Of a stretch of DNA of 64,000 nucleotides, positions 33,967 through 47,655 are shown in pieces. Below the pieces are notes generated by a model. The model ran no database searches and had not been told where the DNA came from. It saw nothing but the letters and a program-made list of their open reading frames with translations. Source of the stretch: Sphingopyxis sp. MWB1 (GTDB lineage Bacteria; Pseudomonadota; Alphaproteobacteria; Sphingomonadales; Sphingomonadaceae); assembly GCF_000763945.1 (NCBI RefSeq), contig NZ_JQFJ01000005.1, positions 1 through 64,000 of the forward strand. Reading direction: 5' to 3'. The position numbers were made by a program, and so were the translations under genes. Numbering within the stretch: the stretch's first letter is position 1; each line of letters starts with the position of its first letter.

Positions 33967-34659
33967 CTATCCGTCGATAAACTTCGCAACTAGATCGGCG
34001 ACCCGCTCGCTGGCTTCCAGCGTCGGCAGATGACCGGTGTCGGGAATGGTTTCCAGCCGGGCCCCGGGGATGGCGCCCGCAATTTCCTCATGATGGGCGC
34101 GGCTGGTGATGCCGTCCTTTTCCCCCCAGATCAGCAGCGTCGGCACCTTGATCTCGCCCAGACGCGGGCGGCTGTCGATGCGCGCCATGATCGCGCGTTG
34201 CTGCGCGAGGAAGGTTTCGGCGCCGGTATCGGCCGCCATTTGCCGCGCGATACCGACAAGATGCGGATCGTCGCGCTTTTCTTCGGGGAACAATATGGGG
34301 ATGCGTTCCTCCACCACCTGATCGAATTTTCCGCTTTCGACGAGGTCGATATAGCCCTGCCTGCGGGCCGTCTGCGCGGGGCCGTCGGCGGAGGCGAGCG
34401 TCGAGATCAGCACGAGCTTCGCCACCCGTTCCGGCGCGCGCCGCATCACTTCAAAAGCGATGAACCCGCCCATGGCGTGGGCGATCAGGATGAAACGCGG
34501 CGGCGCTTTGTCCAGCAGGCGCCGGGCAAAATCCTCGATGCTGTCGTCGCTCCGATTATCGGCGACGATCATCTCCCGGTCAGGCCAGGCCGCGCGCAGC
34601 GGCTGCCACACCGCTTCGGTTAAAAGCTGGCCGGTGATGAGGACGATGGGAAGGGTCAT
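33967..34659 (-). CDS. Alpha/beta hydrolase fold protein lacking the nucleophile serine
   Basis: This 230-residue protein has an alpha/beta hydrolase fold. The nucleophile elbow reads IAHAMGGFIAF where active members have GHSMGG, so the serine is replaced by alanine. The acid (LLIWGEKDGITS) and histidine (PDTGHLPTLE) regions are intact. It is thus either a non-hydrolytic family member or uses another mechanism, as in some lyases and dioxygenases of the fold. It is last in line after the catabolic operon, with a repeat region between. Confidence 0.88.
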   Translation of the reverse strand: MTLPIVLITGQLLTEAVWQPLRAAWPDREMIVADNRSDDSIEDFARRLLDKAPPRFILIAHAMGGFIAFEVMRRAPERVAKLVLISTLASADGPAQTARRQGYIDLVESGKFDQVVEERIPILFPEEKRDDPHLVGIARQMAADTGAETFLAQQRAIMARIDSRPRLGEIKVPTLLIWGEKDGITSRAHHEEIAGAIPGARLETIPDTGHLPTLEASERVADLVAKFIDG

Positions 34660-34770: not shown

Positions 34771-35691
34771 TCATACGACTTGGTGCAGCAGCGCCTCGCC
34801 CGCAGCCAGCCGGCGGCAATTCTCCTCTGCCACCGTCAGGCTGCGCACGAGCGTTTCCGGGGTCAGCCAGGCGATATGCGGGGCGAGCACGGCATTGGAG
34901 AGGCCGAGCAGCGGATGATCCTGCGGCAGCGGCTCCTGTGCAAAAACATCCAGCCCCGCCCCGAGCAAATGGCCCGACGCCAGCGCGTCGACCAGTCGCG
35001 CCTCATCGACCAGTTCGCCGCGCGCGCAATTGACGAGCAGCGCGCCCTTTTTCATCGCAAAGGGGTCGATAGAGCCGCGCGTTTCCTCGGTCAGCGGCAT
35101 GTGGAGCGATACAATATCGCTTTGGGCGATCAGCCGGTCGAGCGGTATATAATCATAGGCGACCGGCTTTTCGCTGCGCGCCGTATAGACGACCCGCGCA
35201 CCCAGCGCTTCGAGCACTGGCGCGAGCCGCTGCGCCGAATGGCCAAAGCCGACGAGTCCGACAGTGCGCCCCGCGATTTCACCGACCGAATCCAGTTCGG
35301 ACGGATCAGCGCTCCACCCCTCGCCCGCGCGCGTGCGCGCGTCAAAAAAACAGGTCCGGCGCAGCACCGCCATCATCAGCGAGAGCGCCATTTCGGCAAC
35401 CGCCTGGCTGTTGGTACCGGGCATATTGCACACCGCGACCCCATGATCACGGGCGGCGTCGAGCGCAATGGTGTTCACCCCCACCCCCAGCTTCTGGATC
35501 AGTTTCAATTTCGGGGCAGCGGCGATAAACTCCGCCGTCACCGGCGTCAGCACGTGAAGCAGAACGGTAATATCCCCCGCCACACCATCAAGCGCCGCAG
35601 CTTCATCGACATGGACGACCACGCCGGGACCAAAGATGGCATCGACGGCTTCGCGAAAACCGGGGCTGGGGCGCGCGTGGAGGACGATCAT
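34771..35691 (-). CDS. D-isomer-specific 2-hydroxyacid dehydrogenase
   Basis: This 306-residue NAD-dependent dehydrogenase has the catalytic histidine in APHIAWLTPET, the arginine in NCARGELVDEARL, the glutamate in DVFAQEPLPQDHPL and the Rossmann motif VGLVGFGHSAQ. The last residue of the usual GxGxxG is changed. It would interconvert a 2-keto acid and a D-2-hydroxy acid. The start at 35691 overlaps the stop of the enolase-like gene (ATGA), so the two are coupled. Confidence 0.92.
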   Translation of the reverse strand: MIVLHARPSPGFREAVDAIFGPGVVVHVDEAAALDGVAGDITVLLHVLTPVTAEFIAAAPKLKLIQKLGVGVNTIALDAARDHGVAVCNMPGTNSQAVAEMALSLMMAVLRRTCFFDARTRAGEGWSADPSELDSVGEIAGRTVGLVGFGHSAQRLAPVLEALGARVVYTARSEKPVAYDYIPLDRLIAQSDIVSLHMPLTEETRGSIDPFAMKKGALLVNCARGELVDEARLVDALASGHLLGAGLDVFAQEPLPQDHPLLGLSNAVLAPHIAWLTPETLVRSLTVAEENCRRLAAGEALLHQVV

Positions 35692-36986
35692 GCCGCCACC
35701 CGCCCGATGGGATCGGCAAAGGCGGTGAAGCCCGCCCATTCGGCGTGGCTTCCTATCGCTTCTTCTATCCGCAGCATTTCATTCCATTTGGCCATGCGTT
35801 CGGAGCGCGTGAAGCTGCCGACCTTGAGCTGCCCGGCGTTCCAGCCGGTTGCGAGATGCGCGATAGTGACATCCTCGCTTTCGCCCGACCGCGCCGAGAC
35901 GATCGCCCCCCAGCCGCGATCGAGCGCCGCGTCGAGCGCTGCCCTGGCCTCAGTCACGGTGCCGACCTGATTGACCTTGATCAGCGCGGCATTGCACACC
36001 GCCGCTTCGGCCGCGCGCGCCACCCGCCCGGCATTGGTCACGAGCACATCGTCGCCGATGATTTGCACGCGGTCGCCGATGCGAGCGGTGATAGCGGCCA
36101 TGGTGGTCCAGTCATCCTGCCCGGCCGGATCCTCAATCGACAGGATCGGATAGCGGCCTGCCCAATCGATGATACGCGCCGCCATTTCCGCGCCCGAGAG
36201 GCGCCGGTCGTCGAGCGCCAGCGCATAGCCCGACGCATCGCCAAATTCATTGGCGGCAATGTCGAGCGAAATGAACACATCCTCGCCCGCGCGGTGGCCA
36301 CTCGCCTCGATGGCCTTGGTCAGCGTGTCCAGCGCATCCTCGTTGGACGAAAAATTGGGCCACCAGCCGCCCTCGTCGGCGACGCCCGAGAGCGGTCCCT
36401 TTTCTTCCATCAACCGGCCGGCCGCCCGATAGACATCATCGGTGATTTCGAGCGCGCGGCGAAAGCTGCCTGCATTGGGGCACATGACCATGAAATCCTG
36501 GACATCGGTGCGCCGCCCGGCATGAGCGCCGCCGCCGAAAATCTGGATTTCGGGGAGCGGAATGCGAACCTTCCGCCCATCGGCAAGATAGCGCCACAGC
36601 GGCGCGCCTGCATCGGCCGCAGCGGCATGAAGCACCGCCATCGACACGGCAACCACGGCATTGGCACCCAGCCGCGCCTTGTTAGCCGTGCCATCGAGGT
36701 CGCACAGGATGCGGTCCACCGCCGCCTGATCACGGGCATCGGCCCCGATGAGCGCGCCCGCGATTTCGGCGCCAATCCCCGCGACCGCGCGATTGACGCC
36801 AAAGCCGCCATAGGCGCTGCCACCGTCGCGCAGGTCGATCGCCTCATGCGCGCCCCGCGACGCGCCCGCCGGGGCGATCGCGCGCCCAACCGCGCCCGAT
36901 TCCAGCGTCACTTCGGCTTCGACCGTCGGGCGCCCACGCGAATCCCAAAGCTGGCGCCCGGTGACGGCGGCGATACGCGAACTCAT
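35688..36986 (-). CDS. Enolase paralogue with altered active site
   Basis: This 432-residue protein is homologous to enolase over its full length. The metal ligands are kept (SLDIAANEFGD, SIEDPAGQDDW, IIGDDVLVTN), as are the lysines (LIKVNQVGTVTE and GQLKVGSFTRSER) and the glutamate of VADEGGWWPN. Two usually invariant positions differ: the loop SHRSGE reads SARSGE, and the catalytic QEFM reads QDFM. A changed substrate is likely, so I give no eno symbol. It is translationally coupled to a kinase (upstream) and a 2-hydroxyacid dehydrogenase (downstream). The long upstream frame is spurious; ATG at 36986 gives the enolase N-terminus. Confidence 0.9.
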   Translation of the reverse strand: MSSRIAAVTGRQLWDSRGRPTVEAEVTLESGAVGRAIAPAGASRGAHEAIDLRDGGSAYGGFGVNRAVAGIGAEIAGALIGADARDQAAVDRILCDLDGTANKARLGANAVVAVSMAVLHAAAADAGAPLWRYLADGRKVRIPLPEIQIFGGGAHAGRRTDVQDFMVMCPNAGSFRRALEITDDVYRAAGRLMEEKGPLSGVADEGGWWPNFSSNEDALDTLTKAIEASGHRAGEDVFISLDIAANEFGDASGYALALDDRRLSGAEMAARIIDWAGRYPILSIEDPAGQDDWTTMAAITARIGDRVQIIGDDVLVTNAGRVARAAEAAVCNAALIKVNQVGTVTEARAALDAALDRGWGAIVSARSGESEDVTIAHLATGWNAGQLKVGSFTRSERMAKWNEMLRIEEAIGSHAEWAGFTAFADPIGRVAA

Positions 36987-37963
36987 ATATTTGTCCTTTT
37001 CCACTGGGCGACGAGCGCATCGAGCGGCGCGGGCGCCAACAGGCACGCGCGGGCCTGATCGCGCACAATGCGCCGATGATCGGGGTCGGTTAGATAAGGC
37101 GCGGGCGACTTGCCCTCGACCCGCGCCAAAAGCAGCGCGGCAGTGAGTGCGCCCGCCCGCCCCAGCAGCGCCTCGGGCGCTTCCCAGTCGATGACGGCGC
37201 AATAGGCCGCGACCATCCCCGCCGCCGCTTCGTTCAGCCGGACGTCGTCGAACCACACGGCTTTGAGCAGCAAATGGGTGGTGCAAAAAGCGAGGTCAAA
37301 GGCGGGGTCGCCATAGACGGCGCATTCGGCGTCAAGGAACAGCGGGCCGTCGGCAGTCACCAGAATATTCTTGGGGCTGACGTCGCCATGGACAAGCGCC
37401 GTCTGGCGCTGCGCCAGATCCTCGGCAAGCGCGCGCAGTGCAGGCGCGCATTCGGCATCGCGATCCGCGACATAGAGAAGAAAAGGGTCGATCCGCAGCG
37501 CGCGAAACATGGCCTGCGTCGAAAAGGCATCGTGGTCGGCAGGGTTGTTCGCCGTGGCGGCATGAACGGCGGCGATGCGCGCGCCCACCGCGGCGGCGAA
37601 ATCCGTATCGATGCGTCCGGCGATCAGTTCCTCTTTCCACACCGGTGCGTCAGCGAGGAAACGCATCGCAAAGCCATAGCCGGGCAGTTCGGCGAGCACT
37701 TCGGGTGCGATGCGCGGGTCAACGCCGCGCGCGCGCCTCAGCCAGCGCACCTCGCTCGCGCCGCGTTCGACGGGGGCATGCCATTCGGCGGCGACGCGGA
37801 GTTGTTCGAGCGGGCGTTTGACGACCAGCGGGCCGTCCACGCCCTCCACCTTCCACACATCGCAGGAAACGCCGCCGGTGAGCGGAACAGGCGCCGCCCC
37901 GTCCGCCACCGCCAGACCGGCGCGGCCCAGATCGTCGACAATAGCCGTGCCCCCATCAGCCAC
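36983..37963 (-). CDS. APH-type phosphotransferase (small-molecule kinase)
   Basis: This 326-residue kinase of the aminoglycoside phosphotransferase fold has the catalytic loop LVHGDVSPKNILV and the metal-binding FLDAECAVYGDPAFDLAF. It most likely phosphorylates a hydroxyl group on a small metabolite. It starts with GTG immediately after the hydrolase stop (TAAGTG) and overlaps the enolase-like start (ATGA). A kinase feeding a lyase of the enolase type is the simplest reading of the context. Confidence 0.9.
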   Translation of the reverse strand: MADGGTAIVDDLGRAGLAVADGAAPVPLTGGVSCDVWKVEGVDGPLVVKRPLEQLRVAAEWHAPVERGASEVRWLRRARGVDPRIAPEVLAELPGYGFAMRFLADAPVWKEELIAGRIDTDFAAAVGARIAAVHAATANNPADHDAFSTQAMFRALRIDPFLLYVADRDAECAPALRALAEDLAQRQTALVHGDVSPKNILVTADGPLFLDAECAVYGDPAFDLAFCTTHLLLKAVWFDDVRLNEAAAGMVAAYCAVIDWEAPEALLGRAGALTAALLLARVEGKSPAPYLTDPDHRRIVRDQARACLLAPAPLDALVAQWKRTNI

Positions 37964-39097
37964 TTACAGCTTCTCCCGGATCCATGCTCCGACCAGATCG
38001 GCGGCATTCTGGCGTTCCTCAATCGAATCCTCGAAATAATGGGCGCCGGTGATGAGTTCGAGGCGCTTGTCCTCGCTGCCCAGAAAGTCGAAAATCTTGC
38101 GCGCGTCGCTGGGGAAAACGCCGGTGTCGGCGGTGCCCTGAACGACCAGTGCGGGCGTGTCATGCTTGGCGAGATGCGGCTTGCCCTGACAGGGCGAGGT
38201 TTCGAGGCTCCACATGTTGAGCCAGGTCTTAATGCTGTTGGCGCGGCCGATGCTGGGCGAGCGATTGGCGATGGCGGGATCGCCGCGATAGCACCAGTTG
38301 GGCTTGCGGTCCGAGGGGTCAATGGCAGGATCAACGCAGCGCAGGTCGCCCCAGCAGCGGAACATCGGGAAGATGCGGTCGGGGATACCCGCGTCATTCA
38401 GCCGCTCAAGCTCGGCTTTCGCCCAATCGGTGATGCGCTGGTTGCGTGCGCGCTGGGCGGCGCGATATTTTGCGATGAAGTCGTCCGAATAGGGCGGGCC
38501 ATTGTCGGGGTTGAAAGGGTCGAGTTCGGGGTCGGTCGCGACCGGGTCATTTTCGTCGATGACCGACGCATCCATCCAGTCGGTGAGTACCTCGGGCCGC
38601 CCCTGATGGGCGTTGAAGCTGATATAAAGATCGCCCTTCACAAGGGTCGCAAGCGCATCCTGCCCGGCGGCAGGCAGCCGGTCGGTCAGCGTCGGCGCAA
38701 TCGCTTCGGCCTGATAGGCGCCCATCAGCGAACCGCCGCCCGAATTGCCGAGGATGACGATGGCCTCCACCCCCGCTTCCTCTTGCAGCCATTTCATGCC
38801 GACGCCGATATCGACGATCGCATGTTCCAGAAGAAATTGATCCTCCATCCCGCGATAGCGGGTGTTCCAGCCAAGGAAGCCGAAACCCTGCCGCGCAAAA
38901 TAAGGGGCGATATAATGTTCGGAGAAATCGACATTATAATGGGTGGCGATGATCGCGACCTTGGGCCGCTTGCCCGCCGCCGTCCAGTAAATGCCCTGAC
39001 AGGGATGGCCGCCTGCCTGAATACGCGGCGCGGTGGGCGACGCGCGGCCGATAAATTGCGCGTCCAGCCCGTCAATCCCGTTCGGGTCCATCATCAT
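37964..39097 (-). CDS. Alpha/beta hydrolase (esterase/lactonase-like)
   Basis: This 377-residue hydrolase has the nucleophile elbow VILGNSGGGSLMGAYQ, an acid loop near LVVQGTADTGVFPSDAR and the histidine in ITGAHYFEDS. It has no signal peptide. It is first in the four-gene operon and could open a lactone or ester to supply the hydroxy acid used by the downstream kinase. The substrate is unknown. A repeat pair lies between its start and the acyl-CoA synthetase gene. Confidence 0.9.
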   Translation of the reverse strand: MMMDPNGIDGLDAQFIGRASPTAPRIQAGGHPCQGIYWTAAGKRPKVAIIATHYNVDFSEHYIAPYFARQGFGFLGWNTRYRGMEDQFLLEHAIVDIGVGMKWLQEEAGVEAIVILGNSGGGSLMGAYQAEAIAPTLTDRLPAAGQDALATLVKGDLYISFNAHQGRPEVLTDWMDASVIDENDPVATDPELDPFNPDNGPPYSDDFIAKYRAAQRARNQRITDWAKAELERLNDAGIPDRIFPMFRCWGDLRCVDPAIDPSDRKPNWCYRGDPAIANRSPSIGRANSIKTWLNMWSLETSPCQGKPHLAKHDTPALVVQGTADTGVFPSDARKIFDFLGSEDKRLELITGAHYFEDSIEERQNAADLVGAWIREKL

Positions 39098-39223: not shown

Positions 39224-40882
39224 TTATCGGCTGACCTCGAAAGGCAGTTCATAGCCCTCCAGCCCTGCGCGGATGTTTTTCTTGTCGACCTTGCCGGTCG
39301 CGCCGAGGGGGATTTCGTCGACGAAGATGATGTCGTCGGGCATCCACCATTTGGCAATTCGGCCGTCGAGATAGGCGCGAATATCGGCGGCGTCGGCAGT
39401 CTTTCCAGGCTTGAGCTGGCACAGCAAAATCGGGCGCTCGTCCCATTTGGGATGGGCAATGCCGACCACCGCCGCGATGGCGACGGCGTCATGGCCGCCG
39501 GCGATATTCTCAATCTCGATCGAGCTGATCCACTCGCCGCCCGACTTGACCACATCCTTGGCCCGGTCGGTAATCTGCATATAGCCCTGATCGTCGATGG
39601 TGCTGACGTCGCCCGTATCGAAAAAACCCTCTTCGTCGAGCACATCGCCGCCTTCGCCGCCAAAATAGGCGCTGGCGATGGTCGGCCCCTTGATCATCAG
39701 GCGGCCCGGCGTTTTTCCGTCATGCGGCAAGCGCTGCCCGGCATCATCAACCAGCTTCATCTCCAGCCCGCAGAGCAGCCGACCCTGTTTGAGCTTATAG
39801 GCCATTTGCGCCGCTTCCGGCTGGGCGGCGACCGCGGCATTGGGCACCGATACGGTGCCAAGCGGCGAGGTTTCGGTCATGCCCCAGCCTTGGACGACAT
39901 CGACGCCATAATCGTCGCGGAAAATGCGGATCAGCGATTCAGGACAAGCCGAGCCGCCGATGGTCACCCGCTCCAGCGTCGTGAAGCGCTTGCCATTATC
40001 CTGCATATATTGAAGCAGCATCTGCCATACGGTCGGCACCGCCGCCGAATAGGTAACCCCTTCTTCCTCGATCAGATTATAGATGGATTCGCCGTCCATC
40101 CTCTGCCCCGGCAGCACCAGCTTTGCCCCCACCGCCGGCGCCGAATAGACGACGCCCCAGGCATTGGCATGATACATGGGCACAACGAGCAGCACCGTAT
40201 CGCGCGCCGACAGGGCGAGCGCGTCGCGCTGCAAGGTCATCAGCGCATGGATATAGTTGGAGCGGTGCGAATAGAGCACGCCCTTGGGATTGCCCGTCGT
40301 CCCGCTGGTGTAGCAGAGGCCGCAGGCGAGATTCTCGTCAAAATCGCCCCAGTCAAATTCGCTCGAATGCCCCGCGATCCAGTCGTCGAACGCCACCGCC
40401 GGATAAGCGGTTTCGGGCAGCGAGGCGGCCTCGCAAAAGAAGATGACTTTCTCGATCGACGGCACTTGCGGCAGCAATTCGGCAACAAGGTCCGCCACCG
40501 CGGGATCGGCAATCAACAGCCGGTCCCCGGCATGGTTGGCGATATAGGCAATTTGTTCGAGGAACAGCCGGGGGTTGAGCGTGTGGAGCACCGCCCCCAT
40601 GCCCGCGGCGCCATACCAGGCGGCCAAATGGCGCGCGCCATTCCAGGCCATGGTGGCGACCCGGTCGCCGGGCTTTATGCCTTCAGCAGCAAGCGCGTTC
40701 GACACGCGCTTTGCGTCGGCATGGACGGCGGCATAGCTCGACCGGGTGACGCGGCCCTCGCCATCGCGCGACACAATCTCCCGCCCCCCATGCCAGGCCG
40801 CGGCATGATCGAGGATGCGATCGACCGTCAGCGGGACATTTTGCATCAGGCCATGCATGGGGGATTCAACCTTGTTTTGCAT
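39224..40882 (-). CDS. Acyl-CoA synthetase (AMP-forming)
   Basis: This synthetase of about 552 residues activates a carboxylic acid as its CoA thioester. The AMP-binding P-loop is CYTSGTTGNPKGVLYSHRSN. QGWGMTETSP, FFDTGDVSTIDDQGYMQITDR and the C-terminal lysine motif LGATGKVDKKNI are all present. It resembles medium-chain AlkK-type ligases. Alternative starts are GTG at 40894 and ATG at 40882. A TTAG-N4-CTAA-type operator lies 24 bp upstream, shared with other genes of the island. Confidence 0.93.
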   Translation of the reverse strand: MQNKVESPMHGLMQNVPLTVDRILDHAAAWHGGREIVSRDGEGRVTRSSYAAVHADAKRVSNALAAEGIKPGDRVATMAWNGARHLAAWYGAAGMGAVLHTLNPRLFLEQIAYIANHAGDRLLIADPAVADLVAELLPQVPSIEKVIFFCEAASLPETAYPAVAFDDWIAGHSSEFDWGDFDENLACGLCYTSGTTGNPKGVLYSHRSNYIHALMTLQRDALALSARDTVLLVVPMYHANAWGVVYSAPAVGAKLVLPGQRMDGESIYNLIEEEGVTYSAAVPTVWQMLLQYMQDNGKRFTTLERVTIGGSACPESLIRIFRDDYGVDVVQGWGMTETSPLGTVSVPNAAVAAQPEAAQMAYKLKQGRLLCGLEMKLVDDAGQRLPHDGKTPGRLMIKGPTIASAYFGGEGGDVLDEEGFFDTGDVSTIDDQGYMQITDRAKDVVKSGGEWISSIEIENIAGGHDAVAIAAVVGIAHPKWDERPILLCQLKPGKTADAADIRAYLDGRIAKWWMPDDIIFVDEIPLGATGKVDKKNIRAGLEGYELPFEVSR

Positions 40883-40905: not shown

Positions 40906-40917
40906 ATAGTATACTAA
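40906..40917. promoter_or_regulatory. MarR-type operator, site 1 (ATAG-TATA-CTAA)
   Basis: The core TAGTATACTA is a perfect palindrome. It is 24 bp before the acyl-CoA synthetase start and in the intergenic region shared with the divergent MarR gene at 41021. Confidence 0.75.
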
Positions 40918-41020
40918 GTATTTTGGGTTAGCAATATCCCTGTTGCTTGCCTCACCCTTAGCCCTCTTCTAGCCTGCTGTCCCCGGCACATGGCCGGATT
41001 CAGGAAGATGCCCGGCCTTT

Positions 41021-41449
41021 ATGCGCACCAATCAATTGATCATCGCGCTGTTTCAGCGCTTTTGCTGGCTCGACGAAGGCTTGCAGGCGCGCCTGCACGC
41101 GCGCGGCTGGCCCGACGTCAGCCGGTCGCAATCCATGGTGATGACCAATATCGTCAGCGGAATCGTGCGCCCGTCGGATATCGCCCGCAATCTGGGGGTC
41201 AGCCGGCAGGCGATCCACAAGACCATCGCACAGATGGCGGCGCTGAGGATTGTCGATATGGCGCCCGATCCAAAGGACCGCCGCCATATGATTGTATCGC
41301 TGACCGAGACGGGCGCACGGATGCGCCGCGACGCGCAGCGCGCGATGGATACGCTGACCGCGCAGCTTGCCGAGCGGCTGGGACAGGATCGTTTCGATGC
41401 GCTGCTCGAAACGCTCGAAGCCGATTGGGGCGACAATATCGAGCGGTAA
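41021..41449 (+). CDS. MarR family transcriptional regulator
   Basis: This 142-residue winged-helix regulator has an HTH in RPSDIARNLGVSRQAIHKTIAQM and a wing in DPKDRRHMIVSLTETG. It is divergent from the acyl-CoA synthetase gene and shares the operator-bearing intergenic region. It is one of two MarR proteins in this island; either could bind the TTAG-N4-CTAA sites. The stop is 5 bp from the convergent reductase stop. Confidence 0.9.
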   Translation: MRTNQLIIALFQRFCWLDEGLQARLHARGWPDVSRSQSMVMTNIVSGIVRPSDIARNLGVSRQAIHKTIAQMAALRIVDMAPDPKDRRHMIVSLTETGARMRRDAQRAMDTLTAQLAERLGQDRFDALLETLEADWGDNIER

Positions 41450-41454
41450 AAGAG

Positions 41455-42030
41455 TCAGGCTGCGAGCGCACCCGCGACGGCGACGAGGCGGTTTGCGGTC
41501 ATCTGGACGAGCGAGGCGGGAAGCGCCTCGGTCAAATTCCCCGCTGCATCAAATGCCTGATGCGCGTTGGGCACGAGCACTTGTTCAGGGATCACCAGAG
41601 TCTGGATGGTCGAGAGTATCTGCCGCAGATGAAGCAGCCCGCGCAGCCCGCCAAAGGGGCTAATCGACGCCGACATCACTGCGCTCGCCTTGCCGCGATA
41701 GGCCGAAAGCGCGATCAGCGATTCCTCACCCGTCGGGCGCGACGCCCAGTCGATGGCATTTTTCAGGAGCGGGGGCACCGATCCATTATATTCGGGCGAG
41801 ACGAAGAGCAGCCCGTCCTGCGCGGCGAAGAGGCTCTTCAGCCGCTGGGCATCCGCGGGAAAAGCATTGGCCTCAATCGCCGCCGAATAAAGCGGCAGAT
41901 CAAATGTCGCGAGGTCGACATCGGTGACATTCGCCCCGGCTTCCTTGAGCGCAGCTATCGCGGCATTGCCGAGCAGACGGTTAAAGGAACCTTCGCGCGT
42001 ACTTCCCACGATAACGGCAATGTTGGTCAC
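41455..42030 (-). CDS. NAD(P)H-dependent FMN reductase
   Basis: This 191-residue flavodoxin-like reductase has the FMN phosphate loop IVGSTREGSFNRLL and the LLFVSPEYNGSVPPLLKNAIDW motif typical of the NADPH-dependent FMN/azo-reductase family. The GTG start at 42030 has GGGAGGG before it. An operator of the shared family lies 23 bp upstream. It may supply reduced flavin or detoxify quinones for the pathway. Confidence 0.92.
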   Translation of the reverse strand: MTNIAVIVGSTREGSFNRLLGNAAIAALKEAGANVTDVDLATFDLPLYSAAIEANAFPADAQRLKSLFAAQDGLLFVSPEYNGSVPPLLKNAIDWASRPTGEESLIALSAYRGKASAVMSASISPFGGLRGLLHLRQILSTIQTLVIPEQVLVPNAHQAFDAAGNLTEALPASLVQMTANRLVAVAGALAA

Positions 42031-42052
42031 AAATCCCTCCCGGCCCATATAG

Positions 42053-42064
42053 TTAGAATACTAA
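42053..42064. promoter_or_regulatory. MarR-type operator, site 2 (TTAG-AATA-CTAA)
   Basis: Within GTTAGAATACTAAC, which has perfect 5-bp arms. It lies 23 bp before the FMN reductase start codon. Confidence 0.78.
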
Positions 42065-42127
42065 CCTATTGGTCGGAGAGGCGGGCGTCAATTGCCCGGG
42101 CGCAAGAAATTACCCAGGTGAGAAATC

Positions 42128-42634
42128 CTATGCCTTGACGTCCGAAAGAACCGCCAGATTGGCGGTTTCCTCCGCCAGATTGTCGATCACCCGCCGCATC
42201 AGCGCCTGAAGCGTCTCCACTTCCTTGTCCGTCATGCCGCGCGTCGCCACTTCATGCACTTCGGCATTCATCGGCGCGAGGATAAGCTCGAGCTTCCTGG
42301 CGTGCGGGGTGAGATAAATATAGGTTTTGCGTCGATCCTCCTCGGTCTTCTTGCGGGTGATGAAGCCCGCTTTTTCCAGACCCTTGAGCGCGACCACGGT
42401 GGTCGGTTCGCGCATTCCCACCCTTTCGCTCAGCTCGCGCTGGGTGATGCCGTCCTCGCGCCAGAGCTGGCGCAGGAAGCGCCATTGTCCCGCCGACACA
42501 TCATGGGTGAGCGTCTTGCGTTCGAGCAGCCGCGAGAAGGAACGAAAGACGATCCGCGCGAGATAGCCGATGCTGTTTTCCGGATGCGTGTAATATTCCG
42601 CCGAATGGCGAAAGCTTTGCGTCTTGCTGGCCAA
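42128..42634 (-). CDS. MarR family transcriptional regulator
   Basis: This regulator of about 168 residues has the winged helix ITQRELSERVGMREPTTVVALKGLEKAGF (split), EEDRRKTYIYLTPHARKLE and C-terminal helices for dimerisation. The TTG at 42634 is preferred because AAAGGGG lies about 7 bases before it; the frame continues to 42676 without a ribosome site. It is divergent from leuD, and operator site 3 lies in between, which makes it the best candidate for the regulon's repressor. Confidence 0.9.
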   Translation of the reverse strand: MASKTQSFRHSAEYYTHPENSIGYLARIVFRSFSRLLERKTLTHDVSAGQWRFLRQLWREDGITQRELSERVGMREPTTVVALKGLEKAGFITRKKTEEDRRKTYIYLTPHARKLELILAPMNAEVHEVATRGMTDKEVETLQALMRRVIDNLAEETANLAVLSDVKA

Positions 42635-42740
42635 TGATGTTCCCCTTTCCGCGAACCTTAGAGCCCTAGGGATCAAGCGGCAATATCCATGACAGATACT
42701 CCAGCTCGCTATCGTTGCACAACAGGCAGCAATGATATAC

Positions 42741-42752
42741 TTAGAATACTAT
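42741..42752. promoter_or_regulatory. MarR-type operator, site 3 (TTAG-AATA-CTAT)
   Basis: This lies between the divergent MarR and leuD genes, 20 bp before the leuD start. One arm base deviates from the consensus. Confidence 0.72.
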
Positions 42753-42771
42753 CTTTCAGCAAAGGGGTGAC

Positions 42772-43359
42772 ATGCAGAAGTTTATCCGGTTGACGGGCGT
42801 GGCCGCGCCCCTCGCGCTCGCCAATATCGACACCGACATGATCATCCCCGCTACCTATATGAAGGCCCTGACCCGCGAAGGATTAGGCAAGCATCTGTTT
42901 CAGGCGCTGCGCTATGCCGAGGATGGCTGCGAGCGGGCGGAGTTCATCCTCAACCGCCCACCCTGCCGCGACGCCACCATCCTGATCGGCGAGCGCAATT
43001 TCGGCTGCGGCTCATCGCGCGAACATGCGGTGTGGGCGCTTGCCGATTTCGGGATCCGCTGCATCATCGCGCCGAGCTTCGGCGATATATTCGCCAATAA
43101 TGCGCGCAAGAACGGCCTGCTGCTTATCCGCCTGCCTGCGGAGACCTGCGCGCGGCTGCGCGGGGAAGCGGCCCGGACGCAATTTGCGCCGATGACCGTC
43201 GATCTGGCCGAGAGGCAGATCAGCCTCTCCTCAGGCGAGAAAATCGGCTTTTCGGTCGACCCGCATGATCGCCGCGTGCTGATGGAGGGGTTGGACGATA
43301 TTGCGCGCACCCTGCGCTATGCCGGGGCAATTGCGGCCTTTGAAGCCGCGCTTTCCTGA
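42772..43359 (+). CDS. leuD: 3-isopropylmalate dehydratase small subunit paralogue
   Basis: This 195-residue swivel-domain subunit of the aconitase superfamily has LANIDTDMIIPATYMKAL and the substrate-recognition loop GERNFGCGSSREHAVWAL. It partners the large subunit encoded convergently 14 bp away. Biosynthetic leuC and leuD normally run in one operon. The convergent layout and shared MarR-type operator suggest a catabolic or otherwise special isomerase, so leucine synthesis should not be assumed. Confidence 0.9.
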   Translation: MQKFIRLTGVAAPLALANIDTDMIIPATYMKALTREGLGKHLFQALRYAEDGCERAEFILNRPPCRDATILIGERNFGCGSSREHAVWALADFGIRCIIAPSFGDIFANNARKNGLLLIRLPAETCARLRGEAARTQFAPMTVDLAERQISLSSGEKIGFSVDPHDRRVLMEGLDDIARTLRYAGAIAAFEAALS

Positions 43360-43373
43360 CCGGCGGGCCAGTC

Positions 43374-44792
43374 TCAGCCCATATCCGCCGGAGCCGCGAT
43401 ACAGCCCGCAAGGGCGCTGGCGGCGGCAAGCGCGGGGCTCATCAAATGGGTGCGCCCGCCCCGTCCCTGCCGGTTTTCGAAATTACGGTTCGACGTCGCC
43501 GCGCAGCGTTCACCGGGCACGAGCCGGTCGGGGTTCATGCCCACGCACATCGAACAACCGGGTTCACGCCAGTCGAATCCGGCGGCGATCAGCGTGTCGG
43601 CGACGCCCTCCTCCTCGGCCTGCCGCTTGACCAGCCCTGACCCCGGCACGACCATGGCGCGGACATGATCCGCCACCCGGCGCCCGCGCACGATATCGGC
43701 GGCAACCCGCAAATCCTCGATCCGGCTGTTGGTACAACTGCCGATGAAAATGCGGTCGAGCCGCAGCCCCGCAATCGGCGCACCCGGCGCCAGATCCATA
43801 TAGGCCAGCGCGCGCTCGGCCACGGCGCGGGCATGGGGGTCGGCAAAACTCGCAGGATCGGGAATGCGGCCATCCACCCCCACCACCTGTGACGGATTGG
43901 TGCCCCAGCTCACCATCGGCGCCACATCGGCGGCGTCGATCCGCACCGCGCGGTCGAACCGGGCGTCGGGGTCGCTGGCAAGGGCGCGCCAGCGTGCCAG
44001 CGCCGCGTCCCAGGCGGCGCCTGACGGGCTGGCAGGACGCCCACGCAAATAGGCAAAGGTCCGCTCATCAGGCGCAACCAGCCCCGCGCGCGCGCCCATT
44101 TCGATGCTGAGATTGCAAAGCGTCATCCGCCCTTCCATCGACAGCGCGGCGACAGCCGGCCCGGCATATTCGATGACATGGCCCGTGGCGCCATCGACGC
44201 CAATCGTCGCCAGCAGGTGCAGCGCCAGATCCTTGGCATGGACATGCGGCGGCAACTGGCCATCGACCCATATCCGCATATTGCGCGACTTGCGCTGACG
44301 GATCGTCTGGGTGGCAAGGACATGCTCCACTTCCGACGTGCCAATGCCAAAGGCGAGCGCGCCAAAAGCGCCATGGGTTGAGGTGTGGCTGTCGCCGCAA
44401 ACGATGGTCATGCCCGGCTGTGATCGTCCCTGTTCGGGGCCGACGACATGGACGATGCCGCCGCGCGGATCGCCCATCGGATAAGCCTCTATGCCAAAGC
44501 GGCGTACATTGTCGGCGAGGGTTTGAAGCTGCGCGCGCGCCTGATCGTCGGCGACCCCCGCGGTTCCTTTCGCCTGCCCGCGCGTCGGAACATTATGGTC
44601 CGAAAGCGCAAGCGCGCGTTCGGGACGGAGCACCGCGCGCCCCGCCGCCCGCAAGCCCGCAAAAGCCTGCGGCGAGGTGACTTCGTGAAGCAGATGCAGG
44701 TCGATATAGAGCAGAGTCTCGCCATCATCCTCGGCAACGGCATGCGCCTCCCATATCCGGTCGTATAATGTTTTCGGATCGGCTCTCGTCAT
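43374..44792 (-). CDS. leuC: 3-isopropylmalate dehydratase large subunit paralogue
   Basis: This 472-residue iron-sulfur hydro-lyase subunit has [12 protein letters not shown] at the N-terminus, the cluster cysteines in [11 protein letters not shown] and [13 protein letters not shown], and [13 protein letters not shown] in the active-site region. The ATG at 44792 is chosen over the ORF extension. Operator site 4 lies 30 bp upstream. With LeuD it would isomerise or hydrate a branched hydroxy diacid. Confidence 0.92.
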
Positions 44793-44821
44793 CCCGCCTG
44801 CGGCTCCGCTTCCCAATATGC

Positions 44822-44833
44822 TTAGAATGCTAA
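44822..44833. promoter_or_regulatory. MarR-type operator, site 4 (TTAG-AATG-CTAA)
   Basis: Within CTTAGAATGCTAAC, 30 bp before the leuC paralogue start. The gap 44834-44924 has no other recognised feature. Confidence 0.77.
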
Positions 44834-44924
44834 CTTATAGGGAGAGCCGAAGGTATAGGGCAAGGCCTTTGTCCCTGCCCCTGCCCCGCCAATCTCCCAG
44901 CCCCACTCCTTGGGGGCGCTGATC

Positions 44925-46220
44925 CTAGAGGCGTCCCAGCGTTTCGCGGCGTGGCCCCAAATATCCGAAAAGATAGGCGGCGACCTTTCGCATCTGTATC
45001 TCTTCCGCCCCTTCGGTAATGCGATAGCGGCGATGGTGGCGATAGATATGCTCAAAGGGCTTGTGCCGCGAATAGCCGATGCCGCCATGCACCTGCATCG
45101 CGCGGTCGGCGGCCTTGCAGACGAGGCGGTTCGCCCAGTAATTGCACATGCTCACCTTGTCTGACAGGCGATGTTCGATCTCCCGGTGCGGTATCTGGTC
45201 CATGTCCCACGCCGTCTTGCGGATGAGCAGGCGCAGCATTTCGGCCTGTGTGGCAAGTTCAACCAGCGGAAACTGGATCGCCTGATTTTTGGCCAGCGCT
45301 TCGCCAAAGGGCTTGCGCGTCCGGGCATAGCGCACGCTTTCCTCGATGCAGTAAACCGCCGCGCCCAGCGACGAGGCCGCCTGGCGGATGCGGTTCTGGT
45401 GGACGAAGCTTTGCGCGATCGACAGCCCGCCGCCTTCCGGTCCCAGCCGCGCGCTGTCGGGCACCCAGACCCCGGTAAAGCTGACGCGCGGATGATCGGT
45501 GGGCATGTTGAAAGTCCACAGATATTCCTCGATTTTGAGCCCCGGAGAAGGATTGGGGACGAGCAGGCAGCTAATGCCCTTCGCCTCGCCATCTGCGCCG
45601 CTGGTGCGGCAAAAGGTCGCGCAATGGGTGGCGGCGTGCATCCCCGTCGTCCACATTTTCTCGCCATCGATGCGCCAGCCCGGCACGCCATCGCGCGTCT
45701 CGGGCACCGCGCGGGTTTTCATATGGGTGGCGTCCGATCCATGCTCGGGTTCGGTCAGGCCAAAGGCGGTGCGGCGCGTGCCTTCAAAGCCGCCGAGGAT
45801 GAACTCGGCCTTTTGCGCGTCGCTGATGCCAAATTGTTCGAACATTTCGACAAAGGGGAAATTGCCGACAATGCTGTGCTCATTTTGCAGATCATTATGC
45901 AGGCCCAGCCCCTTGGCGGCAAAATGCTCGCGGATGACCGCCATCCACAAATTGCTGCCGCCGCGCCCGCCATATTTTTCAGGTGCGGAAAAGCGCCAGT
46001 GGCCCGCCGCATCGGCCCGGCGCGTCGCCTCGCGCAGCAGCGCCTCCCACTCCTCGCGCGGCAGACCCTGATTGTCCCAGTCGGTCCGGCTATGCTCGCG
46101 CCGATGGTCGAAAAAGCGGATATTGTCATCCGCGGCCTCAAGCGGCTTGATCTCGGTCTCGATAAAGGTGTCGAGTTCCTCAAGATAGGCCTGAAGCTCG
46201 GCGGGAATGCTGAAGTCCAT
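44925..46220 (-). CDS. Acyl-CoA dehydrogenase (ACAD10/11-like)
   Basis: This 431-residue flavoprotein of the acyl-CoA dehydrogenase family has AFGLTEPEHGSDATHMKTRA, WTTGMHAATHC, the FAD-binding QAASSLGAAVYCIEESVRYARTRKPFGEAL (split) and MQVHGGIGYSRHKPFEHIYR. It resembles long ACADs of the ACAD10/11 type rather than short-chain dehydrogenases. The ATG at 46220 has AGGGGGA before it. It follows the APH kinase gene by 11 bp, the same pairing found as one fused protein in eukaryotic ACAD10/11. Confidence 0.92.
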   Translation of the reverse strand: MDFSIPAELQAYLEELDTFIETEIKPLEAADDNIRFFDHRREHSRTDWDNQGLPREEWEALLREATRRADAAGHWRFSAPEKYGGRGGSNLWMAVIREHFAAKGLGLHNDLQNEHSIVGNFPFVEMFEQFGISDAQKAEFILGGFEGTRRTAFGLTEPEHGSDATHMKTRAVPETRDGVPGWRIDGEKMWTTGMHAATHCATFCRTSGADGEAKGISCLLVPNPSPGLKIEEYLWTFNMPTDHPRVSFTGVWVPDSARLGPEGGGLSIAQSFVHQNRIRQAASSLGAAVYCIEESVRYARTRKPFGEALAKNQAIQFPLVELATQAEMLRLLIRKTAWDMDQIPHREIEHRLSDKVSMCNYWANRLVCKAADRAMQVHGGIGYSRHKPFEHIYRHHRRYRITEGAEEIQMRKVAAYLFGYLGPRRETLGRL

Positions 46221-46231
46221 AAATCCCCCTC

Positions 46232-47578
46232 TTATCTTTCCCATTGCGCGCGGGCCCACTGTGCGCGGGCACGAGCGAGCGCGGCATATTTGGGGCTGTC
46301 GACCGCACATTTGTCGAGCGCGGCGCGGCGGAGGCGACCCAGCAACCCCGGCTCGGCGAGGCTGCGCGCGCCGCTGAGCAGATCATCGGCCAGCGCACGA
46401 TCCTCGGCGCGGACGGCAGCGTCGAGGTCGCGCATGACGATACCGAGCGCATTCATTGCGACGACCACCTCGAATTTCGCATGGCCTTCGGCGTCGCGCT
46501 TGATCGACTGATCGAGCCAGTCGCGTACCGCTGACAGAATTTCGCCATTGGTCGGCTCCCCCGCGGGTGATCCGGAGGGAGATAGCGAGGGCGGCAGGGG
46601 CTGCATTTTCTCTGCATCCGGAGCGTCATTTTCCAGCAGCGCAAGCAGGTCCAGCTCCTGTTCGGCGGTGCGGCGCCCGATCACGACACGCTCGACGGTG
46701 CGATCGGCGCCGCTGCGCCACATCTGCCCCATTTGCAGGCAGCCCAGCGCCCACCAGAGCGTGCGATAAACGAGCCAGTAATGGAAACGGTCGCGATCGA
46801 CCGGGGCGCCGCCCGCTGCTTCATAAGCGGCAAAATAGTCATCAAGACTGCCAAGCCCCAGCGCGGGCCGGTCGAGCATACCAAAGCGCCAGACGGTCAT
46901 GCATCCAAAGGCCAGATCCTCATGACGGTCGCCGCGATGCGCCAGTTCCCAGTCGAGCACCGCGCGCAGCCCTTCCGGCCCGACCATCATATTACCCATG
47001 CGATAATCACCATGGACCAGCACCGGATCGACCGGCGCGGGCCGATGCGCCTCGCACCAGCGGATTGCAAGCGCAATGATCGGCCGGTCGCCGCCATAGC
47101 TTTCAAATTGTGCCTTCAGCGCCGCCAACGCATCGCCATAGTCCATCACCGGAATGGCATCGGGAAGGGCGGACGCCGGCAGGGCATGGATCCGCGCCAG
47201 TTCGCGGCCCATATCGGCAAGCAAAGTCGGCGGCGGATCGGCCAATATCTTTGCAGGCGCGACCTCGCCCATGATCCGCCGCATGACATAGCCGGTGCCC
47301 AGCCCGTCGCCCTCTTCCAGCACGCCGACCACCTCCGGCGCCATCACCCCGCCTGCACGCGCGGTGCGGACCAGCGCGGCCTCTGTTTCATGGCCAAAGG
47401 GGCGGTCCGCCATATATTTGGCCGAGGGCGCGCGGCGCAGCACAAAGCCCCCGCCTGCCCAGTCAAAGGACCAGCTTTCCATATTGGCGCCGCCCGACAG
47501 CCGCGCCAGACCGGCCACCTCCCCCGGCCCCGCAAGGCGTGTCATCAGGGCAGCGAGCTTATGGTCAAAATCGTTCAT
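46232..47578 (-). CDS. APH-type phosphotransferase (ACAD10/11- or LvaA-like kinase)
   Basis: This kinase of about 448 residues has an APH fold with RLSGGANMESWSFDW at the start, the catalytic loop LVHGDYRMGNMMV and the metal-binding VLDWELAHRGDRHEDLAF. A C-terminal helical extension of about 120 residues (after a Pro/Ser linker PLPPSLSPSGSPAGE) is unusual. By analogy to LvaA and ACAD10/11 it would phosphorylate a 4- or 5-hydroxyacyl-CoA so that the neighbouring dehydrogenase can eliminate phosphate. Starts further upstream would run into the operator. Confidence 0.9.
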   Translation of the reverse strand: MNDFDHKLAALMTRLAGPGEVAGLARLSGGANMESWSFDWAGGGFVLRRAPSAKYMADRPFGHETEAALVRTARAGGVMAPEVVGVLEEGDGLGTGYVMRRIMGEVAPAKILADPPPTLLADMGRELARIHALPASALPDAIPVMDYGDALAALKAQFESYGGDRPIIALAIRWCEAHRPAPVDPVLVHGDYRMGNMMVGPEGLRAVLDWELAHRGDRHEDLAFGCMTVWRFGMLDRPALGLGSLDDYFAAYEAAGGAPVDRDRFHYWLVYRTLWWALGCLQMGQMWRSGADRTVERVVIGRRTAEQELDLLALLENDAPDAEKMQPLPPSLSPSGSPAGEPTNGEILSAVRDWLDQSIKRDAEGHAKFEVVVAMNALGIVMRDLDAAVRAEDRALADDLLSGARSLAEPGLLGRLRRAALDKCAVDSPKYAALARARAQWARAQWER

Positions 47579-47643
47579 GGCATCCCATGGAGCCGCTTCG
47601 CCCCGCCCATATCTCTCCCCCTTCTCCATTGCCGCTTTAATAC

Positions 47644-47655
47644 TTAGTATGCTAA
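47644..47655. promoter_or_regulatory. MarR-type operator, site 5 (TTAG-TATG-CTAA)
   Basis: This lies before the APH kinase gene, 66 bp from the chosen ATG and 15 bp from an alternative ATG at 47629. It lies 145 bp before the divergent EamA gene. Confidence 0.76.

What the first reader, a model, noticed from the sequence alone, without database searches (positions are those of the whole stretch)
40906..47655. Five shared palindromic operators define a MarR regulon over an undescribed catabolic island
The motif TTAG-N4-CTAA (central bases [AT]AT[AG]) occurs at 40906, 42053, 42741, 44822 and 47644, each just before a start codon: acyl-CoA synthetase, FMN reductase, leuD paralogue, leuC paralogue and APH kinase/ACAD. 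Two MarR genes lie in the same block. I found no further copy in the intergenic stretches I read, so the clustering looks specific. The seen part is the motif and gene positions; binding by a MarR protein is inference. The pathway combining a ligase, a kinase, an acyl-CoA dehydrogenase and an aconitase-type isomerase is not one I can name.
Basis: partly seen in the sequence, partly recalled or inferred. Interest (0 to 1): 0.8.

Follow-up and report, generated by a model that had tools for sequence, protein, structure and literature searches.

The report
A catabolic regulon and its repressor
Five short mirror-image DNA sites in the bacterium Sphingopyxis are very likely real switches that belong to a wider, conserved set of unnamed degradation genes, and comparison across many bacteria points to one of the two nearby MarR proteins as the protein that reads them.

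Summary
Clustering is far above chance. In three Sphingopyxis examined in full these genes and sites form one 25-30-kb cluster. Operon heads keep the site (FMN reductase 38/39, ligase 39/41, leuD paralogue 36/38); operon-internal genes do not (enolase 0/45). The site follows MarR2 (42128-42634), not MarR1: all 16 plasmid records with MarR2 relatives (36-44% identity) have exact sites nearby (28 sites; 0 in 300 kb of control DNA from three of those plasmids), while nine MarR1-lineage stretches have none. Against: five MarR2 orthologues in other sphingomonads have no site nearby. The site is of the SlyA type. Inferred mechanism: MarR2 represses at promoters and is released by an inducer, perhaps a CoA thioester. 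The kinase/ACAD pair is a facultative member (6/30). Binding is untested.

The parts
40906..40917 (.). operator ATAGTATACTAA (1 mismatch), between divergent ACS1 and MarR1 genes
   Evidence: site within 250 bp upstream of ACS1 in 39 of 41 related loci
42053..42064 (.). operator TTAGAATACTAA upstream of the FMN reductase gene
   Evidence: 38 of 39 related loci
42741..42752 (.). operator TTAGAATACTAT (1 mismatch) between divergent MarR2 and leuD-paralogue genes
   Evidence: 36 of 38 related loci for leuD'
44822..44833 (.). operator TTAGAATGCTAA upstream of the leuC paralogue
   Evidence: 20 of 30 related loci
47644..47655 (.). operator TTAGTATGCTAA upstream of the APH-type kinase/ACAD pair
   Evidence: present in 6 of 30 Sphingopyxis APHa loci examined, so facultative
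42128..42634 (-). MarR2, the proposed cognate repressor (possible longer TTG start at 42676)
   Evidence: Pfam MarR 56.7 bits vs cut-off 24.6; tracks the operator across genomes; conserved PTT-type recognition-helix region
41021..41449 (+).
   Evidence: Pfam MarR_2 35.2 vs 27; nine MarR1-lineage stretches without MarR2 lack the site
39224..40882 (-). ACS1, acyl-CoA ligase, first gene of the 40906 operon
   Evidence: NF004674 846.7 bits vs cut-off 766
37964..39097 (-). alpha/beta hydrolase-like protein, 91-93% identical in three other Sphingopyxis
   Evidence: weak Hydrolase_4/Peptidase_S9 matches, identity; no PDB sequence relative at E<=0.001
36983..37963 (-). APH-type kinase b
   Evidence: PF01636
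35688..36986 (-). enolase paralogue
   Evidence: TIGR01060 471.8 bits vs 300; another enolase-like place at C2:186978, 45% identical
34771..35691 (-). D-isomer-specific 2-hydroxyacid dehydrogenase
   Evidence: PF02826 165.5 bits; conserved synteny
33967..34659 (-). small alpha/beta hydrolase, last gene of the conserved operon
   Evidence: PF00561 69.2 bits; synteny
41455..42030 (-). NADPH-dependent FMN reductase
   Evidence: PF03358
42772..43359 (+). leuD paralogue
   Evidence: TIGR00171 199.4 bits vs 116.25
43374..44792 (-). leuC paralogue (61% identical to the other leuC at C2:2495925)
   Evidence: TIGR00170 695.3 vs 560.25
44925..46220 (-). acyl-CoA dehydrogenase
   Evidence: PF00441/PF02770
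46232..47578 (-). APH-type kinase a with DUF6285 (possible start at 47629)
   Evidence: PF01636, PF19802

Best explanation
The palindromes are operators of one MarR/SlyA-type repressor, MarR2 (42128-42634). MarR2 would bind as a dimer to TTAG-N4-CTAA in promoter regions, typically 20-60 bp before the start codon, and block transcription of several operons that together form one catabolic regulon: acyl-CoA ligase 1 with hydrolase/kinase/enolase-like/hydroxyacid dehydrogenase, FMN reductase, leuC'D', a second ligase, a TonB-receptor uptake and processing cluster, CoA-transferase and HMG-CoA-lyase-like genes, and in some species a kinase/ACAD pair. An inducer, plausibly a CoA thioester or acid of the pathway, would release it. 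Shown: sites, positions, conservation, co-occurrence with MarR2. Inferred: binding, repression, inducer, chemistry.
For: Own genome: 8 WTAGNATNCTAW sites, all before linked genes, reversed control 0. Genus: 69 of 80 genomes have a match, 57 of 80 have five or more (my count), reversed controls 0-5. Three relatives examined in full carry one 25-30-kb cluster with sites at operon heads. Footprint over loci L124-L172: FMNr 38/39, ACS1 39/41, LeuD' 36/38, MetE-like 35/35, ACS2 35/38, LeuC' 20/30, versus enolase 0/45, hydroxyacid dehydrogenase 0/45, APHb 1/45, CMD 0/21, hydrolase 4/49. MarR2 without MarR1 in the locus, sites kept: L207, L212, L214, L160, L161, L168. MarR1 without MarR2 in the genome (G320): 0 sites in 40 kb. 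All 16 plasmid records with MarR2 relatives (36-44% identity) have an exact site: 28 in 252 kb versus 0 in 300 kb from three of these plasmids and 0.35 expected from shuffles. Similar A+T-rich flanks in distant and Sphingopyxis sites. Published SlyA consensus is TTAGCAAGCTAA / TTAN6TAA (PMC5797941, passages).
Against: No binding or expression data. Five sphingomonad MarR2 orthologues (L208-L211, L213) have no exact site in the stretch fetched; their genomes hold 0-3 exact sites elsewhere (G021 none), whose context was not examined. L113 and L115 have only the one-base-off form. Genomes with MarR1 but no MarR2 also hold 0-3 exact sites elsewhere, the background level. Related loci are not independent, so footprint counts overstate the number of independent events. 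Candidate -35/-10 overlaps are weak, 6-9 of 12 matches. MarR1 is well conserved beside the 40906 site in Sphingopyxis and cannot be excluded as a second binder; one paralogous MarR1-like stretch (L216), which also holds a MarR2 relative, has one exact site.
Confidence: 0.83

Rival explanations
1. MarR1 (41021-41449), alone or together with MarR2, reads the palindromes; MarR2 serves another target.
For: MarR1 is divergent from ACS1 with the 40906 site in the shared gap; a site lies upstream of MarR1 in 37 of 40 related loci. In the Sphingopyxis loci both MarR genes nearly always occur together.
Against: Nine MarR1-lineage stretches (L173, L217-L224; L223 and L224 are neighbours in one genome) have 0 exact sites; G320 has MarR1, many of the catabolic genes, no MarR2 and no site there. 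Loci with MarR2 and no MarR1 nearby keep sites. The recognition-helix region differs between MarR1 and the MarR2 subfamily. Not examined at this length: the MarR1 relatives at G056, G101:C1 and G201:C1:417150; left out because a MarR2 relative is also present: L215, L216.
Confidence: 0.12
2. The palindromes are promoter parts (a conserved -10 region) or another non-regulatory conserved element, not a repressor operator.
For: The A+T-rich centre resembles a -10 box and sites lie close to start codons.
Against: In distant loci the arms TTAG and CTAA recur while the centre varies (TTAGGAAGCTAA, TTAGATGCCTAA, TTAGGTGGCTAA), the opposite of a promoter. WTAGNATNCTAW occurs nowhere else in the genome. 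Presence goes with MarR2.
Confidence: 0.04
3. The regulated pathway is a 4-hydroxyacid (levulinate-type) catabolic route built on the kinase/ACAD pair.
For: APH-type kinase, ACAD and acyl-CoA ligase are the kinds of enzyme in the lva route (recalled).
Against: The kinase gene has the operator in only 6 of 30 loci examined, though 70 of 80 Sphingopyxis genomes have it. In G399, G402, G404 and G405 it lies far from the cluster. The clusters read in full lack it.
Confidence: 0.1

Closest known systems
SlyA/RovA MarR-family regulators (consensus TTAGCAAGCTAA, TTAN6TAA; PMC5797941, passages read; PMC2156107 and PMC6401476 seen only in the listing)
   Same: Same operator architecture and outer letters; MarR fold; MarR2 matches the SlyA model PRK03573 at E 9e-11.
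   Different: Far below the SlyA model cut-off (41.9 vs 120 bits); sits in, and is predicted to repress, a dedicated catabolic cluster, whereas E. coli SlyA is described as antagonising H-NS (abstracts in the listing).
MarR repressors of catabolic clusters such as IacR and IadR/MarR_73 for auxin (PMC9613470 and PMC10374108, passages read; PMC11630574, passages and sections 7-9 read)
   Same: MarR gene beside a catabolic cluster it is thought to repress; MarR2 relatives on plasmids also lie near Rieske oxygenase genes.
   Different: PDB 7l19, given in PMC11630574 as the Enterobacter soli template, matches MarR2 only weakly (28.9 bits) and 7KFO (Variovorax) is not among the hits at E<=1e-4. The iad oxygenase is a two-subunit IadD/E enzyme (PMC10374108); the plasmid module has a Rieske protein with a LigXa_C domain plus Gfo/Idh/MocA and a 4,5-dihydroxyphthalate-decarboxylase-like protein.
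DdvR, MarR-type regulator of LigXa-type genes in Sphingobium SYK-6 (recalled; from no call)
   Same: MarR regulator linked to a LigXa-type Rieske protein.
   Different: Not compared here; relation to MarR2 and its operator not tested.
LeuCD isopropylmalate isomerase and LeuCD-like maleate/citraconate hydratases (latter recalled)
   Same: LeuC' and LeuD' pass the NCBIfam leuC/leuD cut-offs.
   Different: A second leuC, 61% identical, exists in the genome; the island copy sits in a catabolic regulon, so a catabolic hydratase role is likely but untested.

Membership tests
MarR family | MarR DNA-binding domain above the Pfam cut-off | tested here: met
   MarR2: PF01047 56.7 vs 24.6; MarR1: PF12802 35.2 vs 27
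SlyA (orthologue) | score above the NCBIfam SlyA model cut-off | tested here: not met
   PRK03573 41.9 bits vs cut-off 120
SlyA-type DNA recognition | operator TTAN6TAA / TTAG-N4-CTAA associated with the regulator | tested here: met
   association, with five orthologues as exceptions; consensus from PMC5797941
SlyA-type DNA recognition | physical binding of MarR2 to the site | not testable with these tools
   needs EMSA or footprinting
HpaR (homoprotocatechuate regulator) | score above the NCBIfam cut-off | tested here: not met
   TIGR02337 55.7 bits vs 121.2
Isopropylmalate dehydratase LeuC/LeuD | score above leuC and leuD cut-offs | tested here: met
   TIGR00170 695.3 vs 560.25; TIGR00171 199.4 vs 116.25
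Isopropylmalate dehydratase LeuC/LeuD | sole leuC in the genome, as expected of the leucine-biosynthesis copy | tested here: not met
   second leuC at C2:2495925, 61% identical
HMG-CoA lyase | score above the subfamily cut-off | tested here: met
   PRK05692 290.1 vs 246 for the C2 gene; substrate unknown
Succinate--glutarate or mesaconate CoA-transferase | score above equivalog cut-offs | tested here: not met
   277.6 vs 750 and 248 vs 700; class III CoA-transferase of unknown substrate
Levulinate (lva) pathway | full lvaABCDE gene set in one operon (recalled) | not tested
   only kinase, ACAD and ligase were noted; no search for the rest

The most novel reading that the evidence does not exclude
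A MarR subfamily with a shared PTT-type recognition-helix region reads roughly AWWTAC-TTAG-N4-CTAA-GTAWWT across Alpha-, Beta- and Gammaproteobacteria. On plasmids it mostly goes with a module of LigXa-like Rieske oxygenase, reductase, Gfo/Idh/MocA and 4,5-dihydroxyphthalate-decarboxylase-like protein for aromatic (perhaps pyridine) carboxylic acids; in Sphingopyxis it governs an undescribed ~30-kb pathway without that module, which activates acids to CoA thioesters, carries an enolase/kinase branch, and ends in hydration by LeuC'D', CoA transfer and HMG-CoA-lyase-type cleavage, for example of citramalate to acetyl-CoA and pyruvate.
Probability: 0.3. Interest if true: 0.62.

Novelty: new member of a known kind. 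Interest (0 to 1): 0.5.

Why it matters
It turns an observed motif into a regulator-operator pair that can be tested directly, defines the gene set of an unnamed degradation pathway whose sites occur in most Sphingopyxis genomes searched (57 of 80 with five or more), and gives a motif that groups related catabolic clusters in other Proteobacteria. Without the pathway's substrate it remains a well-founded but ordinary kind of discovery: a repressor with palindromic operators over catabolic genes.

Tried and rejected
A plasmid search with MarR1 gave only Agrobacterium/Allorhizobium relatives at about 32% identity; the one fetched stands among unrelated genes and has no site. PDB sequence searches found nothing for the hydrolase and only distant proteins, mostly called hypothetical, for the CMD-like protein. 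The HMG-CoA-lyase-like and CoA-transferase proteins matched broad families, not a substrate. Plasmid searches with the hydrolase and the CoA-transferase gave generic annotation only; one of the CoA-transferase hits was opened. Ten paper searches ran. Those aimed at the cluster (26, 31, 32), a Sphingopyxis MarR operator (35), MarR with Rieske and dihydroxyphthalate decarboxylase (80), MarR with phthalate (81), and MarR with Rieske and TTAG (104) listed no paper that, by title and abstract start, describes this regulon; subscription papers are mostly not held. Whether MarR2 is the Root154 IadR1 of PMC11630574 (gene_00256) cannot be told from the sections read. A levulinate-type reading was set aside.

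The promoter scan let hexamers float near each site, so its matches are weak and are not used as proof. The reversed-pattern control of the genome search is much commoner than the motif when the centre is free (117 vs 21; 6-70 vs 0-11), so it overestimates chance; shuffles and same-replicon DNA were used instead. The same-replicon control came from three of the 16 plasmid records, chosen because they carry next to no annotation. In the footprint, genes below set identity limits, and genes without enough upstream DNA and without a site, were left out of n.
Full report
1. The observation. TTAG-N4-CTAA occurs exactly at 42053, 44822 and 47644 (expected 0.08, 0 of 100 shuffles reach 3). The sites at 40906 and 42741 have one outer A/T change. 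At up to two mismatches the window has no more matches than shuffles.

2. The whole genome. The window is C5:1-64000 of a 3.12-Mb genome. TTAGNATNCTAA with up to one mismatch has nine places: the five, plus C5:140131, C5:148203, C2:1087122 and C2:1202555. Annotation of fetched stretches shows: C5:140131 between a DUF3237-like gene and a TonB-receptor / GST / MFS / SnoaL-like / CMD-like / VOC-like row; C5:148203 upstream of a second acyl-CoA ligase at the other end of that row; C2:1087122 between an HMG-CoA-lyase-like and a class III CoA-transferase gene. Names rest on family hits except SnoaL, SDR, DUF3237 and the second ligase, which are my reading of the sequence; the MetE-like, CMD-like and VOC-like proteins are below the cut-offs of the families they match. 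C2:1202555 has another centre and no such context. With WTAGNATNCTAW the genome has 8 matches and 0 for the reversed pattern; 73 of 199 family genomes have any match, most genomes having 0-2. One genome, G016, has 57 and is a separate case.

3. The genus. Record titles show it is Sphingopyxis. In 80 genus genomes 69 have a match and 57 have five or more (my count). In three relatives read in full (G405: L104/L105; G402: L106/L107; G408: L108/L109) the genes split over three places here form one cluster of 25-30 kb, with small differences in gene content: LeuC', LeuD', MarR2, FMN reductase, MarR1, ACS1, hydrolase, kinase, enolase-like, hydroxyacid dehydrogenase, small hydrolase, MetE-like, ACS2, VOC, GST, SMP30, CMD, SnoaL, SDR, MFS, TonB receptor, DUF3237, GSTs, CoA-transferase, HMGL-like, with operators at operon heads. 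In others (G399, G400, G407) the sites fall in two groups or more.

4. Footprint with an internal control. Over the 49 loci, counting those in which the gene was found and upstream DNA was held, a WTAGN4CTAW site lies within 250 bp upstream of FMNr in 38 of 39, ACS1 39 of 41, LeuD' 36 of 38, MarR2 40 of 43, MarR1 37 of 40, MetE-like 35 of 35, ACS2 35 of 38, LeuC' 20 of 30, TonB receptor 2 of 2, DUF3237 2 of 3; and of enolase 0 of 45, hydroxyacid dehydrogenase 0 of 45, APHb 1 of 45, CMD 0 of 21, VOC 2 of 32, hydrolase 4 of 49. CoA-transferase and HMGL were each held once there, without a site (0 of 1); their site is seen in the own genome and in L105, L107 and L109. The kinase of the kinase/ACAD pair has the site in 6 of the 30 loci held; 70 of 80 genomes have the gene.

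5. Which MarR. Of 397 family genomes, 21 have MarR1 relatives (E<=1e-20) and 20 have MarR2 relatives (E<=1e-30). MarR2 without MarR1 in the locus but with sites: L207, L212, L214, L160, L161, L168. MarR1 without MarR2: G320, with many of the catabolic genes, has no site in L223/L224 and no MarR2 in its genome. Nine MarR1-lineage stretches (L173, L217-L224) have 0 exact sites; L215 and L216 were left out of that set because a MarR2 relative is also present, and L216 has one exact site. L138 and L166, which show sites without a MarR2 found in the locus, have a MarR2 elsewhere in their genomes. Against this, five MarR2 orthologues away from the cluster (L208-L211, L213) have no exact site nearby, and L113 and L115 have only the one-base-off form.

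6. A test outside the sphingomonads. All 16 plasmid records with a MarR2 relative at E<=1e-25 (36-44% identity, relisted) were fetched at their best place. All 16 have at least one exact TTAG-N4-CTAA: 28 sites in 252 kb, against 0.35 expected from shuffles and 0 in 300 kb taken from three of the same plasmids. L282 and L297 come from two strains of one Acidovorax species and share the same site, so the 16 are not all independent. Using the Polaromonas proteins (L281, itself one of the 16) as queries at E<=1e-20, a relative of the Rieske protein (LigXa_C domain) is in 14 of 16 stretches, of the 4,5-dihydroxyphthalate-decarboxylase-like protein in 15, of the PDR/VanB reductase in 15, of Gfo/Idh/MocA in 14, and all four in 11. 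The Rieske / Idh / decarboxylase triad also lies beside the cluster in the non-Sphingopyxis loci L112 (same contig as L156), L116, L117, L157, L160, L161 and L207, and split over L214/L215, but not in L212, the window, L013-L015 or L104-L107. Flanks are alike: A+T-rich, then mostly A/G and C before TTAG in both sets. The recognition-helix region reads PTT or PTA in the MarR2 set and is different in MarR1.

7. Mechanism. TTAGCAAGCTAA / TTAN6TAA is the published SlyA site (PMC5797941, passages). The best reading is a SlyA-type MarR dimer on promoter-proximal operators acting as a repressor, released by a ligand. Location (median -21 to -62 bp from start codons for ACS1, LeuD', FMNr, ACS2, MetE-like and LeuC') fits repression. 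Binding, repression and the ligand are inferred; that some MarR repressors beside CoA ligases respond to CoA thioesters is recalled knowledge.

8. Pathway. Not named. Two ligases, a TonB receptor, LeuC'D' (a second leuC exists, 61% identical), a class III CoA-transferase (PDB relatives include succinate--hydroxymethylglutarate CoA-transferase) and an HMG-CoA-lyase-like protein would fit hydration of a methylated C4/C5 diacid to citramalate, CoA transfer and cleavage to acetyl-CoA and pyruvate. This is inference with low confidence. The enolase/kinase/dehydrogenase branch is unexplained.

9. Verdict. Novelty: a new member of a known kind of regulation over an undescribed gene set.

Noticed in passing
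window 35688-36986: Island enolase scores well above the enolase cut-off but appears to differ at conserved active-site positions (SARSGE where E. coli has SHRSGE; QDFM for QEFM, compared from memory), beside a kinase and a hydroxyacid dehydrogenase. Another enolase-like place, 45% identical, is at C2:186978, reported with one in-frame stop within the match, which was not looked into.
   Followed up: partly
L154 (Sphingopyxis terrae), MarR1-ACS1 gap: The gap is 395 bp instead of about 125; the extra ~270 bp is bounded by inverted repeats (AGGGTCAGGACCCATTAAT...), like a miniature mobile element, and leaves the operator intact.
   Followed up: no
genome G016: 57 matches, those listed of ATAGTATCCTAT/TTAGTATCCTAA type, versus 1 reversed control in one family genome: a genome-wide repeat or another regulator's site.
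   Followed up: no
L216 (G324 C1:160000-179900): A paralogous set in a Sphingopyxis: MarR1-like (38%), DUF3237-like and TonB-receptor-like genes with ATAGTATTCTAA and TTAGTTTGCTAA nearby, and a 46% MarR2 relative at C1:168677.
   Followed up: partly
L283, L291, L292: nadC (quinolinate phosphoribosyltransferase) genes lie in MarR2-relative clusters of Thalassospira and Massilia plasmids, and L292 (Variovorax) has a 2,5-dihydroxypyridine dioxygenase, hinting at pyridine carboxylate substrates.
   Followed up: no
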